A stretch of 64,000 nt of DNA. Source: an uncultured Clostridia bacterium (GTDB lineage Bacteria > Bacillota > Clostridia > Christensenellales > Borkfalkiaceae). Below are positions 1 through 18,611 of the stretch, one piece after another. A model generated the notes under the pieces. It did no database searches. It was not told the origin of the DNA and was given only the letters and a program-made list of their open reading frames with translations. A program made the position numbers and the translations under genes. The stretch lies in NCBI GenBank assembly GCA_947631925.1, contig CANRNE010000001.1, positions 1 through 64,000 of the forward strand. The letters run 5' to 3'. Position 1 is the stretch's first letter, and each line of letters starts with the position of its first letter.

Positions 1-111
1 GATTTGGGAAAATACAGGCAATATGCCGAAAAGGCGTTCGAGGAGTTGGCGGGCTACAAGGCGATTTATGACAGTATACGCAGTCGTCAAAAAGGACAAC
101 ACGATAGATGA
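1..111 (+). CDS. C-terminal end of an unidentified protein (partial)
   Basis: The first 36 codons of the window form an open frame ending in TGA at 109-111. The residues are helical and charged (DLGKYRQYAEKAFEEL...QKGQHDR), which looks like a genuine protein tail, whereas the opposite strand here gives Cys- and Pro-rich nonsense. The gene starts outside the window and the family cannot be named. It converges on the recombinase remnant and overlaps its last recognisable codons (about 83-111), which suggests that one or both ends were trimmed by rearrangement. Confidence 0.45.
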   Translation, partial: DLGKYRQYAEKAFEELAGYKAIYDSIRSRQKGQHDR

Positions 112-572
112 ACGAGTTGAAAAATTCGTTTTTCTCCTCGTCGTTCTGGTATTTCTTCCTCACAAAGTAAATCAGAAACGCTTTTACCGTTTCGTATTGG
201 AGCGGTTGAATTTGCCGTGCCTTTTCCAATGCGATCTTTCCTTCGAGAACATCATTTTGCTGTTCCAAAGCAAGCAGTCTTTCCTTTGTGGACTTCGTAA
301 CGACTCCCTCGGCAATGGCGTTCAGAAAGCCGTTTATGGACTTCTGAACCTGTTGTTGCTCCTTTTCGAGCAGAGTAAGCGAATCGGACTTTGTAATGCT
401 GGTATTGAATTTCTCTACGACCGCCAAGGCAATTTTTTCTATAACCTGAGGTTTTAAGACATAATCTATCGTCTTTTCAAAGACGAGGTTTTCGAGCTTC
501 TCTTTTGTAATATTGCTCTTATTGCATTGCTCCTTGTTCTTCTTTCGGTTAAAACACTTGTAGTATTGCCGT
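83..572 (-). pseudogene. Large serine recombinase, C-terminal remnant
   Basis: Read on the minus strand, the frame gives the second half of a recombinase zinc ribbon (YYKC..RKKNKEQC), a helix containing NLVFEKTIDYVL, a long coiled coil rich in E, Q and K, and the family-typical end (ETVKAFLIYF, then NSFIYRVVLFDD). These features are characteristic of the C-terminal half of Clostridial large serine site-specific recombinases. The catalytic resolvase domain, the DNA-binding recombinase domain and the first zinc-ribbon cysteines are absent: homology stops at about 572 and a stop codon lies at about 601. The frame stays open to base 1, but after about base 83 it no longer resembles the family. 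This is a dead fragment of an integrative element. Confidence 0.7.
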
Positions 573-1893: not shown

Positions 1894-1935
1894 ACAAGCC
1901 GCGGCGGGGCACAATGGTGCCCCGCCGCGGCTTGT
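1894..1935. repeat. Long perfect palindrome, left copy
   Basis: Two perfectly complementary 19-nt arms (beginning ACAAGCCGCGGC) surround the loop AATG. A second copy at 3022-3063 has the same length, loop position and flanks. The two differ by one base pair in each arm (C:G here, A:T there), a compensatory change that keeps the stem perfect. No U-tract follows, so it is not a normal intrinsic terminator. The pair brackets the small-RNA array. Confidence 0.85.
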
Positions 1936-2184
1936 ATAAACGAACATGGTGAGGGATTCGAGGGTGGAGGCGCGAGCGAGAGCGAGCGGTTTGCGGACGA
2001 ATTGCAGGACGGCAACCGAGTTCGCCGCAAACTGCACAGCACGGTGTGCTGTGCACCGGGGCGCGCCGCTAAAGGCGCGAATCCCTCACGCTTTGGCGGA
2101 GTCCCTACGCCAATGCGTCATGCAGTTCAAACATCAACACCTGTGCCCCGCCGTGCCGTTTTCTCCGAAAATGGAACCCTTAAA
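1936..2184. other. Non-coding, GC-rich intergenic block with a short hairpin
   Basis: No convincing gene is visible. A perfect hairpin lies at 2033-2055 (arms TGCACAGCAC, loop GGT). A closely related one, sharing CACAGC/GCTGTG, lies in the repeat-rich gap at 35071-35095. The last part (from about 2148) resembles the sequence before the second small-RNA promoter, suggesting that the upstream block was duplicated. Confidence 0.5.
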
Positions 2185-2201
2185 TTTTCTGAAAAAATCT
2201 C

Positions 2202-2230
2202 TTGACTTTGCGCTCGAAGTTACGTATAAT
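2202..2230 (+). promoter_or_regulatory. Sigma-A promoter of small RNA A
   Basis: The -35 box TTGACT (2202-2207) and -10 box TATAAT (2225-2230) are 17 nt apart. The upstream stretch TTAAATTTTCTGAAAAA is shared almost exactly with the promoter of RNA B, which implies duplication or a conserved upstream element. Confidence 0.8.
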
Positions 2231-2235
2231 AATGA

Positions 2236-2317
2236 GTGTGGCGTCGGCGTGTTCCGACCTGACATTTGAAGTCTAACCACACTGAAAGGGTAACATTCTG
2301 TTGCCCTTTATTTATTT
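2236..2317 (+). ncRNA. Putative small RNA A
   Basis: This is the transcript predicted from the promoter ending at 2230. It can fold as a three-way junction: closing stem AGTGTGG (2235-2241) with CCACACT (2277-2283), hairpin GTCGG/CCGAC (2243-2258, loop CGTGTT) and a weak GAC/GTC hairpin (2261-2273). A strong intrinsic terminator follows at 2285-2309 (AAAGGGTAACA paired with TGTTGCCCTTT), then an A/U-rich tail. No start codon with a ribosome-binding site is present, so a non-coding product is likely. I do not recognise the family; the transcription start is inferred from promoter spacing. Confidence 0.65.
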
Positions 2318-2405
2318 CGGTCTTCCCCTTCAGAGATTTTTTTCAGCTCCCATTGATGCAAACAGTATTTGTTTTGTGCAAAAACTTCTCCATGAAAGCT
2401 CTTCC

Positions 2406-2520
2406 TCACAGCTTTCCGTAGCCGTCCTGCGTGCTGTCGGCGATGCCGCGGTAGTACTGCCGCAGTTTCGGCGTCAGAGGCCCGCCGTGCCACCGAAGGA
2501 AACCATTAAATTTTCTGAAA
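2406..2520 (-). pseudogene. C-terminal remnant of an unidentified protein
   Basis: The minus-strand frame reads FNGFLRWHGGPLTPKLRQYY, continues as RGIADSTQDGYGKL, and stops at TGA (plus 2406-2408). The composition is protein-like and GC-rich. No start codon, ribosome-binding site or complete domain is visible, and the 5' end runs into the promoter block of RNA B. It is probably a fragment stranded by rearrangement. I could not assign a family. Confidence 0.35.
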
Positions 2521-2526
2521 AACCTC

Positions 2527-2555
2527 TTGACTTTTCGAGCCTATTTGCTTATAAT
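2527..2555 (+). promoter_or_regulatory. Sigma-A promoter of small RNA B
   Basis: TTGACT (2527-2532) and TATAAT (2550-2555) are separated by 17 nt. The preceding sequence TTAAATTTTCTGAAAAA matches the block before promoter A. Confidence 0.8.
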
Positions 2556-2561
2556 GAATAT

Positions 2562-2641
2562 AGCAGTAGAAATACTGCAGGGAGCTTGTCAGAGTTGGCG
2601 GATCTCAACCGCAGGGCCTGCTCCCTATTTTTTTATTTTTT
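2562..2641 (+). ncRNA. Putative small RNA B
   Basis: The predicted transcript opens with a perfect 6-bp hairpin, GCAGTA/TACTGC, capped by a GAAA tetraloop (2563-2578). It ends with a large terminator stem AGGGAGC (2579-2585) paired with GCTCCCT (2620-2626) and a long U-tract. The 34-nt interior of the terminator stem can form a smaller GCGG/CCGC helix. No ribosome-binding site or reading frame is apparent. The layout (own promoter, compact fold, own terminator) matches RNAs A, C and D although the sequence differs. Confidence 0.65.
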
Positions 2642-2669
2642 CTCCCGCTTCTTTTTTCGTTGCGAATGC

Positions 2670-2698
2670 TTGACACTCTTCTTTCTCCTTGCTATAAT
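2670..2698 (+). promoter_or_regulatory. Sigma-A promoter of small RNA C
   Basis: This is a perfect consensus promoter: TTGACA (2670-2675), 17-nt spacer, TATAAT (2693-2698). Strong transcription is expected. Confidence 0.85.
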
Positions 2699-2704
2699 CA
2701 TTCT

Positions 2705-2815
2705 TGACGACTATAAAGTTGGCAAGGTCCAACAAGGTTGGGTGCGCCGCGAACCCACGAAAAACGATAGTCGACCGTTTTTCTAACCGTCCGCATTTAC
2801 GGGCGGTTATTTTTC
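2705..2815 (+). ncRNA. Putative small RNA C
   Basis: The predicted transcript folds as a clear three-way junction: closing stem CGACTAT (2708-2714) with ATAGTCG (2767-2773), hairpin GTTGG/CCAAC (2718-2733, loop CAAGGT) and hairpin TGGGT/ACCCA (2739-2757). A separate terminator follows (AACCGTCCG 2785-2793 with CGGGCGGTT 2800-2808, then U-rich). The order of stems, and the 5-bp second hairpin with a 6-nt loop, parallel RNA A. There is no credible ORF. The family was not recognised. Confidence 0.7.
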
Positions 2816-2858
2816 TGCGTCTCTTCGGCGAAGAATTTCGAATTTTTTGAGACATTCC

Positions 2859-2887
2859 TTGACTTTCCGCCGGGGACATGGCACAAT
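2859..2887 (+). promoter_or_regulatory. Sigma-A promoter of small RNA D
   Basis: TTGACT (2859-2864) and a weaker -10 box CACAAT (2882-2887) are 17 nt apart. Confidence 0.65.
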
Positions 2888-2892
2888 CATTC

Positions 2893-2962
2893 ATGAAGTC
2901 GGCATCGCTGCGGTGTAACCCGAAGTGCGAAGGAGCTCGTATGGGCACCGACTTCATTTTTT
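2893..2962 (+). ncRNA. Putative small RNA D
   Basis: The closing stem ATGAAGTCGG (2893-2902) pairs perfectly with CCGACTTCAT (2948-2957) and runs straight into a six-U tract, so the outer helix itself serves as terminator. The interior may form two short hairpins (CGC...GCG with inner GGT/ACC, and CGA/TCG), again giving a junction. One ambiguity: AAGGAG followed by ATG at 2941 could start a 22-codon ORF (MGTDFIFYTSF...) ending at about 3009. That ORF would need read-through of the terminator, so I favour the RNA. Confidence 0.6.
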
Positions 2963-3021
2963 ATACTTCTTTCTCGTCTCCTTATCTTCCTCATCGATTT
3001 CGCTTTTAAGATTTCCGCTGG

Positions 3022-3063
3022 ACAAGCCGAGGCGGGGCACAACGGTGCCCCGCCTCGGCTTGT
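3022..3063. repeat. Long perfect palindrome, right copy
   Basis: Two 19-nt arms (beginning ACAAGCCGAGGC) surround the loop AACG. It matches the copy at 1894-1935, including flanks (CCGC..GACAAG before, ATAA after), with a compensatory pair change in the stem. It closes the small-RNA array on the right. Confidence 0.85.
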
Positions 3064-3189: not shown

Positions 3190-5436
3190 ATGAAAAAGAA
3201 GACCCTGTTTGCGATTTTGGCAATTGTTCTCGCATGCGCCGTGGGACTCGGCGGGTGTGTATTTCAACACAAGTCCGCGGCGTATGAAATCACCCGCACC
3301 CCCGACATGAGCTACTGGCTCGAGGTGGGCGAGGAAGTGGATTTCACGCAATATTTCACCGTAAAGAACGCGGACGGCATGGAAATCAAAGTCACGGAGG
3401 ACATGCTCGATTTGAGCGAAGTTGACCTCACCCACCCCGGCATGTTCGAAGTGACGCTCACCATTGGGGGCAAGAGCATGACCATCGCATTCGCCGTGCG
3501 GGAAGGGGGCGGCGCGGGCGACCTTTCGGATGTTCTCGATGCGTATGCGGACCCCGAGACCCGCAACTTCACCGTCACCGTGTCGATAGTCGGGGACAGC
3601 TACCTCGATGTCTATGACTATGCGGGGCTCAACGTGCGCAACCGCTACGCCTATGATGGTGTGAATTATGTTGATTATCTGGCCTACGACACGACGCTCG
3701 ACTGCTACGAGTTCTACTATCAGAACGACGACGGCACTTACGATGTCTTCGAAGAGGGCTCCACTGACTTCGAGGAATGCTATGCGTTGCTCCAGCTCAT
3801 CGACGTCTCCGTCCTTGCGGACTTCTCCTTCACCTTGGAGGGGGAGAGCTACGTCGCGGAAAATCCCGCCGCCGTCGGCAGCGCCGCGCTCGGCGATTGG
3901 ATGGACGAAGAGGGCGACAGTCTCAGCTGGACGGGCTTCGAACTCACCCTCGCGAACGGCAAAATCTCCAAAGTCGTGGCGACCATGTCGGACGGTACCG
4001 CCTCGCAGTACGTGTTCTCCAACCATGGGAGCGTCTCCTTCACCCTGCCCAACGGCGGCGGCACGACGCCCACGCCCACGCCTTCGGGAATGATGGAGCG
4101 GCAGACTTACAATCCATCCTCCTTCGACAACGGGCGCCTGCAGGACAAACTGGTGTCGGTGGGGGAAGACTCCATCGGACTTCCCTCGACGGGTTCCTAT
4201 CACGCGCTCGTCATTCCCGTACAGTTCCAAGGAGATACGGTCTCTGCGGCACAGCTTGAAAGGCTCGGGATTGCCTTCAACGGCACCGAGGAGCAGACGG
4301 GCTGGGAGAGCGTGAAGACGTATTACCAAAAGTCCTCCTACGGCAAGCTCGACATCACCTTCGACATTCAGGATGTCTATGTGACCCAATACGGGGCCTC
4401 CCATTATGAGCAGTACAGCACGAGCGTCGACTCGGAATTCGGGCGTTACAACCAGACGGGGGAAGAGGTCGTCCTGCTCGAGGCGCTCTCCCATTACGAG
4501 AACGAGCTCGACCTTACGCAGTACGACTTCAACGACGATGGGATGATAGACGCCGTCTATCTCATCTATTCCTCGCCCGTGGACTATCAGGAGGGCGACT
4601 TCTTCTGGGCGTACACGACTTGGTATTTCGGCGACAATACATACGACAACTGCTACCCGTATTATTACTTCTTCGCGGGGTTCGACTTCATGGACGAGAA
4701 CACGGGGCGGAGCCATGTGGGAAGCGACACCTATGACAAGCCCATCGACGGCCTCAAAGTCAACGCCTCGACGTTCATCCACGAGACGGGGCACCTCTTG
4801 GGACTCGACGATTACTATGATTATTATGAAAACGAGGGCAGCAATGAGGGCCTCGGCGGCGCGGACATGATGGATAACACGGTGGGAGACCACGACGTCT
4901 ATTCCAAGACCATGCTCGGCTGGCTCACGCCCACCGTCGTGAATGAGAGCAAGACGGTGACCATCAGAAGCTCCACGGAGAGCGGGGGCGCCCTCTTAAT
5001 CCCCCTCAAGTTCGACAATTCCTACTTCTCGGAGTATCTGCTCATCGACCTCTACACCAATACGGGGCTGAACGCCCTGCATGCGGGGCAGGACGGCTCC
5101 TACCTCTATGACGGGCGGCCCTTCGGGGCGCGCATCTATCACGTCTCCTCGTCCATTGAGACGCCTTACAACGAGGAGGACGAATACGGCTCCTTCACCG
5201 ATTACAACAACTCTACGACCAAGTATTCGCTCATCAAGCTCGTCGAGGCGGACGGCGAGAAGAAATTTGCGTCGTCGGACGGGTATGCCTCCCGCAGCGA
5301 CCTCTTCCAAACGGGCGACAAACTCTCCGAAATCTTCCCCAAGTACACGCGAAACGACGGGAAACTGTTGTGCTTCGACATTTCCTTCGACAGCGTCACG
5401 GCGGATTCCGTCACCGTCACCGTCACATTCTATTGA
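3190..5436 (+). CDS. M6-family zinc metalloprotease lipoprotein
   Basis: This 748-aa protein begins with a lipoprotein signal peptide ending in LGGC (Cys 23), so it should be lipid-anchored on the outer face of the membrane. The zinc-binding motif HETGHLLGLDD (His 531, Glu 532, His 535 and the downstream Gly/Asp) is that of M6 (immune inhibitor A-like) peptidases. The family feature of a Trp/Tyr-rich segment (TYYQKSSYGKLDI) lies upstream, and ADMMD follows as the Met-turn. The N-terminal 300 residues look like beta-rich, Asp/Tyr-rich accessory domains, followed by a TPTPTP linker. ATG 3190 is preceded by AAAGGAGAC. The likely role is extracellular protein degradation; the substrate is unknown. 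It is monocistronic, with its own promoter and terminator. Confidence 0.85.
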   Translation: MKKKTLFAILAIVLACAVGLGGCVFQHKSAAYEITRTPDMSYWLEVGEEVDFTQYFTVKNADGMEIKVTEDMLDLSEVDLTHPGMFEVTLTIGGKSMTIAFAVREGGGAGDLSDVLDAYADPETRNFTVTVSIVGDSYLDVYDYAGLNVRNRYAYDGVNYVDYLAYDTTLDCYEFYYQNDDGTYDVFEEGSTDFEECYALLQLIDVSVLADFSFTLEGESYVAENPAAVGSAALGDWMDEEGDSLSWTGFELTLANGKISKVVATMSDGTASQYVFSNHGSVSFTLPNGGGTTPTPTPSGMMERQTYNPSSFDNGRLQDKLVSVGEDSIGLPSTGSYHALVIPVQFQGDTVSAAQLERLGIAFNGTEEQTGWESVKTYYQKSSYGKLDITFDIQDVYVTQYGASHYEQYSTSVDSEFGRYNQTGEEVVLLEALSHYENELDLTQYDFNDDGMIDAVYLIYSSPVDYQEGDFFWAYTTWYFGDNTYDNCYPYYYFFAGFDFMDENTGRSHVGSDTYDKPIDGLKVNASTFIHETGHLLGLDDYYDYYENEGSNEGLGGADMMDNTVGDHDVYSKTMLGWLTPTVVNESKTVTIRSSTESGGALLIPLKFDNSYFSEYLLIDLYTNTGLNALHAGQDGSYLYDGRPFGARIYHVSSSIETPYNEEDEYGSFTDYNNSTTKYSLIKLVEADGEKKFASSDGYASRSDLFQTGDKLSEIFPKYTRNDGKLLCFDISFDSVTADSVTVTVTFY

Positions 5437-7224: not shown

Positions 7225-7272
7225 TTCCAAACGAAGGGGGCTTGGCACCAGCCAAGCCCCCTTCGTTTGGAA
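7225..7272. repeat. 48-bp palindrome between convergent genes
   Basis: Two perfect 22-nt arms (TTCCAAACGAAGG... through CTTGGC) surround the loop ACCA. It lies exactly between the convergent stop codons of the 574-aa gene and the InlB-repeat lipoprotein gene. Neither strand has a U-tract, so a bidirectional hairpin or transcript-end stabiliser is likelier than a classical terminator. It resembles the palindromes at 1894, 3022 and 47742 in having long perfect arms and a 4-nt loop starting with A. Confidence 0.8.
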
Positions 7273-18480: not shown

Positions 18481-18574
18481 GGAAGAGTAGCCAAGGCGCG
18501 TCAAGTGTTGCGAAACGGGACGTTGTTCGCAAACGAAAGGAAGATATCCTGCGGTGCCGCGGCGCGTCCGCTTC
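18481..18574 (+). promoter_or_regulatory. Tetrahydrofolate (THF) riboswitch
   Basis: The leader contains the conserved blocks of the THF class in order: GGAAGAGTAG, GCGTCAAGTG, GGGACG, ACGAA, GCGGTG and CGTCCGCTTC. These correspond to GGAGAGUAG, GCGUUAAGUG, GGGAUG, CGAA, GGUG and CAUCCGCUCC in the well-studied Streptococcus aptamer. The pseudoknot partners GGGACG and CGTCC differ from that example by a compensatory U-A to C-G change. The gene downstream encodes a folate-type ECF S component, the classic target. High THF should reduce folT expression. Confidence 0.88.
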
Positions 18575-18611
18575 GTCGTCGTGCCCCCGTATTCAGACGG
18601 CGAAATTACGG

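What the first reader, a model, noticed from the sequence alone, without database searches (positions are those of the whole stretch)
1894..3063. Palindrome-bracketed array of four small RNA units, each with its own promoter and terminator
Within about 760 bp (2202-2962) there are four sigma-A promoters with 17-nt spacers: TTGACT/TATAAT, TTGACT/TATAAT, TTGACA/TATAAT and TTGACT/CACAAT. Each drives a stretch of only 70-110 nt that folds into compact hairpins or junctions and ends in an intrinsic terminator. No intact protein gene lies among them. The interval is bracketed by two almost identical 42-bp palindromes and sits beside recombinase and helicase remnants. I know of no described family with this layout. 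It could be a mobile small-RNA cassette, a set of antisense or decoy RNAs, or RNAs of a defence system.
Basis: partly seen in the sequence, partly recalled or inferred. Interest (0 to 1): 0.88.

Follow-up and report, generated by a model that had tools for sequence, protein, structure and literature searches.

The report
Orphan phage antitoxin-like small RNA array
Four small structured RNA genes in a row turn out to be leftovers of virus-like mobile elements, where the same RNAs sit beside small proteins (one family shaped like the RNA-cutting toxin MazF), so the array is probably a set of kept RNA antidotes whose poisons are gone, in a layout not described before.

Summary
Four promoter–RNA–terminator units (called A–D here) lie at 2202–2966: three promoters match 11–12 of 12 positions with a 17-nt spacer, against 0.002 expected. 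No Rfam family matches. The RNAs are real, conserved families: A, B and C recur across an uncultured Clostridia family (A in 26 and C in up to 34 of 398 genomes) with strong covariation, and C has a pseudoknot.

In relatives, and on contig C22 of the same genome, the same RNAs lie in intact integrated elements (rolling-circle Rep, membrane ATPase, IS30-type integrase). They are antisense to the element genes and directly beside small protein genes: A–T3, B and D–T1, C (and its relative G)–T4. This pairing far exceeds controls. T1's predicted fold matches MazF/PemK toxins in two libraries; one T3 member weakly matches PemK. Elsewhere the RNAs stand alone or in arrays, promoters mostly intact and protein genes lost or truncated. 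The window array is one such, carrying two element-gene scraps.

Best reading: type III-like RNA antitoxins encoded opposite their toxin, and an array of orphan antitoxin RNAs retained after element decay, perhaps as anti-addiction genes. Neutralisation and toxicity are inferred. The palindromes are real but not general to such arrays.

The parts
2202..2230 (+). promoter of RNA A (TTGACT-17-TATAAT)
2236..2316 (+). RNA A: three-way junction plus terminator hairpin; in intact elements convergent with T3 (F25) protein genes
   Evidence: fold z -4.5; covariation; T3 pairing
2404..2481 (-). scrap of an element gene: last ~24 codons and stop of a 79-aa protein that precedes the ATPase gene in the G135 element (L179:4008-4247)
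   Evidence: 77 nt at 79% identity; reading frame shown
2527..2555 (+). promoter of RNA B (TTGACT-17-TATAAT)
2561..2634 (+). RNA B: 5' hairpin, then closing stem around a nearly invariant 28-nt core, then T-run; in elements convergent with T1 genes
   Evidence: pairing L187 and L229
2670..2698 (+). promoter of RNA C (TTGACA-17-TATAAT, 12/12, TG before -10)
2704..2815 (+). RNA C: P2, P3 and P4 hairpins, pseudoknot of the 5' CGACU with the P4 loop AGUCG, terminator; in elements divergent from T4 (F18) genes
2859..2887 (+). promoter of RNA D (TTGACT-17-CACAAT, 9/12)
2893..2966 (+). RNA D: long closing stem with inner hairpins, then T-run; 92% identical to RNA D of the C22 element, where it is convergent with a T1 (MazF-fold) gene
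2957..3028 (-). scrap of the T1 gene: match to its last 24 codons (58% identity) at the 3' end of RNA D
   Evidence: tblastn E 6.7e-4; DNA match 2886-2998 at 93% to L009
1894..1935 (.). left palindrome, 19-nt arms
3022..3063 (.). right palindrome, 19-nt arms; with the left one part of a 59-bp direct repeat
1953..2086 (.). copy of a dispersed ~130-bp repeat of this genome, not part of the RNA array
38..565 (-). recombinase remnant, frame broken
   Evidence: tblastn E 1.5e-25 to the C22 recombinase

Best explanation
The four RNAs are orphan RNA antitoxins. In intact integrated elements each such RNA is made from its own strong promoter on the strand opposite a small toxin-like protein gene, tail-to-tail with T1, T2 or T3 and head-to-head with T4. 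The folded RNA presumably binds and inactivates the protein, as ToxI does with the MazF-fold ToxN. After the element decayed, the protein genes were lost or truncated while the RNA genes were kept, here as a row of four. They would protect the cell from toxins of resident or incoming elements (anti-addiction); the same genome carries an intact element with the D-T1 and C-T4 pairs. Shown: RNA families with conserved folds, their element origin, RNA-protein gene pairing, MazF-like predicted fold of T1, loss of protein genes with retention of promoters and folds. Inferred: toxicity, RNA-protein binding, neutralisation in trans, benefit to the host.
For: Homologues of A-D in the C22 element and in 29 of 251 family genomes. 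Covariation of A: 26 of 26 pairs with changes on both sides, 96.9% of cells paired (that alignment was fitted to the model; the unfitted one gives 7 of 26); B; C with pseudoknot, 13 pairs. RNA strand selected: G-U 59 against A-C 11 in A, 11 against 1 in B. Pairing: T3 4/4 and T2 2/3 convergent, T1 8/25 convergent, T4 5/5 divergent; other ORFs in the same loci 15/664 and 18/664 (p 3e-7 to 3e-9). Subfamilies match: F18 with C, F20 with G. T1 model (pLDDT 79): the top 35 PDB matches are all MazF-family (prob 1.00 for the best, E 0.018, TM ~0.5-0.56), and the top of the viral library is dominated by PemK/MazF. PemK_toxin weakly matches a T3 member (E 0.0035, below cutoff). Orphan RNAs keep promoters of 10/12 or better (A 12/18, B 7/8, C 13/15, G 9/10) beside lost or truncated T genes. 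Element-gene scraps in the window.
Against: T4, partner of C and G, has a confident model with no PDB match; T1-T4 show no mutual sequence homology. 17 of 25 T1 genes have no detected convergent unit. T1 has no sequence match to known toxins, and the fold-match E-values are modest. Orphan and paired are partly a matter of contig context, and the orphan counts for C and G overlap. No transcript, toxicity or binding data. RNA D is known from only two copies, and its window promoter is weak (9/12).
Confidence: 0.57

Rival explanations
1. The RNAs are structural or regulatory parts of the element's life cycle (replication, packaging, gene control), and the neighbouring small basic proteins are RNA- or DNA-binding partners, not toxins; the chromosomal copies are leftovers or regulators taken over by the host.
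For: RNAs have fixed places between element genes, always antisense; proteins are lysine-rich; T4 has no known fold match.
Against: T1 has a MazF/PemK-like predicted fold; several RNA families pair with several protein families; orphan copies keep promoters and folds without any element genes.
Confidence: 0.22
2. The RNAs are antisense or superinfection-immunity RNAs (like P4 CI/C4 RNA or type I antitoxins) that act by pairing with element mRNA; chromosomal arrays give immunity to related elements.
For: RNAs are antisense to element operons and abut or slightly overlap the 3' ends of T1-T3 genes; arrays collect several families.
Against: Overlap is only tens of bases, and none for the divergent C/G-T4 pairs; the fold of the RNA strand is conserved; the same genome holds the array and a resident element with 92% (D) and 87% (C) identical RNAs, which immunity would oppose.
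Confidence: 0.13
3. The array is a non-functional remnant of a decayed element.
For: Scraps of element genes lie between the units; some orphan A copies have weak promoters.
Against: Three of the four promoters match 11-12/12; orphan copies across genera keep pairing by compensatory changes while the protein genes are gone.
Confidence: 0.08

Closest known systems
Type III toxin-antitoxin systems (ToxIN, CptIN, TenpIN, AbiQ)
   Same: MazF/Kid-fold protein (T1 by predicted fold) next to a small structured RNA that ends in an intrinsic terminator; one RNA (C) is pseudoknotted.
   Different: RNA on the opposite strand with its own promoter, a single unit of 70-115 nt rather than tandem 34-50-nt repeats, and several unrelated RNA families in one element. 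Type III loci are bicistronic, RNA first, one promoter (PMC5086642).
AbiF with ncRNA RCd22 (C. difficile phages)
   Same: Phage-borne structured ncRNA of ~100 nt with sigma-A promoter and terminator that neutralises a toxin in trans (PMC12373285).
   Different: RCd22 precedes abiF on the same strand, the toxin is a different protein, and the RNA is Rfam RF03085, which did not match here.
Type I TA with convergent RNA (txpA/RatA, bsrG/SR4; from memory)
   Same: Prophage-borne RNA gene convergent with the toxin gene.
   Different: Type I toxins are tiny hydrophobic peptides and the RNA pairs over a long 3' overlap; here the proteins are 95-220 aa and soluble-looking, the overlap is short, and the fold covaries.
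Orphan antitoxins and chromosomal anti-addiction modules
   Same: Antitoxin-like genes kept in chromosomes, able to blunt toxins of mobile elements (anti-addiction discussed in PMC12548467).
   Different: The cases I found in the searched papers concern whole TA systems or protein antitoxins; arrays of orphan RNA antitoxins were not found.
Phage PhiTE ToxI mimic (PMC3475682)
   Same: An antitoxin RNA outside its toxin locus that neutralises in trans.
   Different: There the phage takes up the RNA to escape; here bacterial chromosomes hold several element-derived RNAs.

Membership tests
Type III toxin-antitoxin system | Toxin with MazF/Kid-like fold | tested here: met
   For T1, partner of B and D in elements: PDB and viral fold searches, predicted model only. 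Not shown for T4; T2 and T3 not modelled. No toxin gene remains in the window.
Type III toxin-antitoxin system | Antitoxin RNA made of tandem repeats | tested here: not met
   Single units throughout; the only repeat seen is a two-copy RNA A in G047.
Type III toxin-antitoxin system | Bicistronic operon: RNA upstream of toxin on the same strand, one promoter, terminator between | tested here: not met
   RNA on the opposite strand with its own promoter, convergent or divergent.
Type III toxin-antitoxin system | Toxin is an endoribonuclease, inhibited by direct RNA binding | not testable with these tools
   Needs expression and binding assays.
Type I toxin-antitoxin system | Long antisense complementarity of RNA to toxin mRNA; small hydrophobic toxin | tested here: not met
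   3' overlap is at most tens of bases and absent for C/G; proteins 95-220 aa, lysine-rich.
Any Rfam family, including C4 antisense RNA, ToxI and abiF motif | Match to the covariance model | tested here: not met
   No match reaches a gathering score in the window array or related arrays.
Filamentous phage (inovirus) for the parent elements | Rolling-circle Rep of G2P type or similar | tested here: met
   REP_ORF2-G2P E 1e-11 in L074; the other elements carry Rep_OBD plus helicase instead.
Filamentous phage (inovirus) for the parent elements | Zot/pI-type assembly ATPase | tested here: inconclusive
   Conserved ~735-aa membrane protein with a P-loop, but no match in PHROGs or PDB.

The most novel reading that the evidence does not exclude
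These Clostridia hold a growing chromosomal collection of antidote RNAs: whenever an element carrying several convergent MazF-like toxin/RNA pairs decays, selection keeps only the RNAs, so arrays such as A-B-C-D here, C-G-G-G in G018 and C plus five G in G223 act as a heritable anti-addiction memory against the family's mobile elements. The toxin/RNA pairs themselves would be a new architecture of RNA-neutralised toxin systems with many unrelated RNA folds.
Probability: 0.3. Interest if true: 0.9.

Novelty: new variant of a known kind. Interest (0 to 1): 0.76.

Why it matters
If true, RNA antitoxins are far more varied than the repeat-based ToxI type: single folded RNAs with their own promoters, encoded opposite the toxin, several kinds per mobile element. 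Orphan arrays would show hosts keeping the antidote and discarding the poison, a simple testable route by which bacteria escape addiction to mobile DNA. It also gives at least seven undescribed RNA families with partner proteins ready for bench tests.

Tried and rejected
Rfam search of window and related arrays: no family. Palindromes as defining brackets: rejected as general, since they occur only here in the genome and not around other arrays. Left interval 1953-2086 as part of the array: it is a dispersed repeat. IMG/VR scans with the RNA cores: no hits. Genome-collection scan with the C core: the hits outside Clostridia MAGs were not examined and taken as chance matches of a 20-base pattern; the Clostridia hits match genomes already found. 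T4 as MazF-like: no fold match. T1-T4 as one sequence superfamily: not supported by hhalign, though T1 and T2 share an H..YV...TH-like motif. ATPase F1 as Zot: no sequence support. T1 outside the family: 0 other matches among 331 genomes drawn across the class. J RNAs (T1 partners) did not align well enough for a covariation test. Defence-system library: no match.

Full report
What is there. Between 2202 and 2966 lie four promoter-RNA-terminator units, A to D, all on the + strand. Three have promoters matching 11, 11 and 12 of 12 consensus positions with a 17-nt spacer; shuffles of the same stretch give 0.002 such sites. The fourth is 9/12. The RNAs are 74-112 nt and fold better than shuffled sequence. 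No intact protein gene lies among them and no Rfam family fits.

They are real RNA families. The genome itself holds further copies of C and D on contig C22. A DNA search of 251 genomes of the family found homologues in 29, in 9 of 18 genera. Covariance models found A in 26 of 398 genomes and C in 34 of 398, in 9 and 10 genera; several of the weak C hits are the related RNA G and some may be chance. A is a three-way junction with 7 of 26 pairs showing double changes in the unfitted alignment and all 26 in the larger, model-fitted one, with 0 of 500 shuffles reaching the observed values. B has six such pairs. C has 13 and a pseudoknot between its 5' end and the P4 loop, including CG to UA exchanges. 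In A and B, G-U pairs far outnumber A-C mismatches (59:11, 11:1), so it is the transcribed strand whose fold is kept; C was inconclusive in this test.

Where they come from. On C22 the RNAs C, D and two further ones (E, F) lie in an integrated element next to the tmRNA gene. The element has a Rep with origin-binding and superfamily-3 helicase domains, a large membrane P-loop protein, secreted or membrane proteins and an integrase-like gene; other elements use a G2P-type Rep and an IS30-like integrase. All element genes run one way and the RNA units run the other, in the gaps between genes. These look like filamentous-phage-like elements, but the assembly ATPase could not be identified by sequence.

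The partner genes. Each RNA unit in an element abuts a small lysine-rich protein gene: A with T3 (F25), B and D with T1, E-like RNAs with T2, C with T4a (F18), G with T4b (F20). Counting all ORFs in the collected loci, a convergent RNA unit within 60 bp of the stop codon is found for 4/4 T3, 2/3 T2 and 8/25 T1 genes but 15/664 other ORFs; a divergent unit for 5/5 T4 genes but 18/664 others (Fisher p between 3e-7 and 3e-9). The seed proteins were partly noticed because they lay by RNAs, so T2-T4 counts are not independent; the T1 set came from a genome-wide protein search and is the fairest test. Two T1 genes in different genomes pair with RNA B (L187, L229), one with D, others with further RNAs (J) whose closing stem also forms the terminator. 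The predicted T1 structure (29 sequences, pLDDT 79) matches MazF-family structures in the top 35 places of the PDB search and PemK/MazF-like phage proteins at the top of the viral library. E-values are modest (0.018, 0.005), sequence searches find nothing, and T4 matches no known fold. A T3 member weakly matches PemK_toxin. The nearly invariant H26 and T44 of T1 fall where MazF has its catalytic Arg and Thr (inference from motif order).

Arrays without partners. Many copies lie outside elements. G018 has C-G-G-G, G165 F-E-B-B plus another RNA, G245 B-A-F'-C, and G223 C plus five G. Where T genes remain they are fragments: T4 20-38% of length, T2 57%, T1 up to 67%. Promoters of 10/12 or better persist in 12/18 orphan A, 7/8 B, 13/15 C and 9/10 G copies, the last two sets overlapping. 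The window array fits: the 3' flank of D contains the end of a T1 gene (2957-3028, 24 codons) and 2404-2481 is the end of another element gene. A recombinase remnant lies at 38-565. The palindromes are real but do not bracket other arrays, and the stretch 1953-2086 is a dispersed repeat.

How it most likely works. A MazF-fold protein beside a small structured RNA is the signature of type III toxin-antitoxin systems (PMC5086642), and a phage-borne single ncRNA with its own sigma-A promoter can neutralise a toxin in trans (AbiF/RCd22, PMC12373285). I therefore read the RNAs as antitoxins and the window array as a set of orphan antitoxins kept after the element decayed. Since C22 carries intact D-T1 and C-T4 pairs with RNAs 92% and 87% identical to those in the window, the orphans may shield the cell from that element's toxins (anti-addiction, a concept reviewed in PMC12548467). 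Toxicity, binding and rescue are not shown.

Membership. The systems fail two defining features of type III loci, tandem repeats and the bicistronic RNA-first operon, so they are not filed as members; they are a variant that probably works like type III. Nothing like orphan RNA antitoxin arrays turned up in the searched papers, which hold only open-licence literature. T1 seems confined to this bacterial family (44 of 345 family genomes; none but the own genome in 331 drawn across the class).

Noticed in passing
window 18481-18575: THF riboswitch (Rfam RF01831) above gathering score on the + strand.
   Followed up: no
window 1953-2086: Copy of a ~130-bp dispersed repeat with terminal inverted repeats (GTGAGGGATTCG...CGAATCCCTCAC), about nine copies in the genome, some in tandem.
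   Followed up: partly
window 7225-7272: Another large perfect palindrome (22-nt arms) in the window, unrelated to the RNA array.
   Followed up: no
window 3190-5436: Secreted 748-aa protein with HETGHLLGLDDYYDY, looks like a zinc metallopeptidase (from the sequence, not searched).
   Followed up: no
L009:17722-18113: tmRNA gene directly beside the C22 element, with a recombinase remnant beyond it; possible integration site.
   Followed up: no
L020:1466-1650 (G047): Two tandem copies of RNA A behind one promoter, reminiscent of repeated type III antitoxins.
   Followed up: no
L115, L116 (G329, G230): RNA A bodies carrying the TAACCGTTCC-type terminator hairpin of the C/G family: terminators look exchangeable.
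   Followed up: no
L213, L216, L218, L219, L230, L231; L179:7253-7368 with L228: Two more RNA kinds convergent with T1 (J) and T3-like (K) genes; not yet modelled.
   Followed up: partly
L078, L073: Short AT-rich RNA units convergent with T2 genes sharing AAATATTATTT..CTTTTTCC-stem-GGAATTCTTT.
   Followed up: no
L009:15600-16706 and L074:10868-11857: Otherwise similar elements use unrelated replication proteins: CRESS-like Rep (Rep_OBD plus helicase) or G2P-type Rep.
   Followed up: partly
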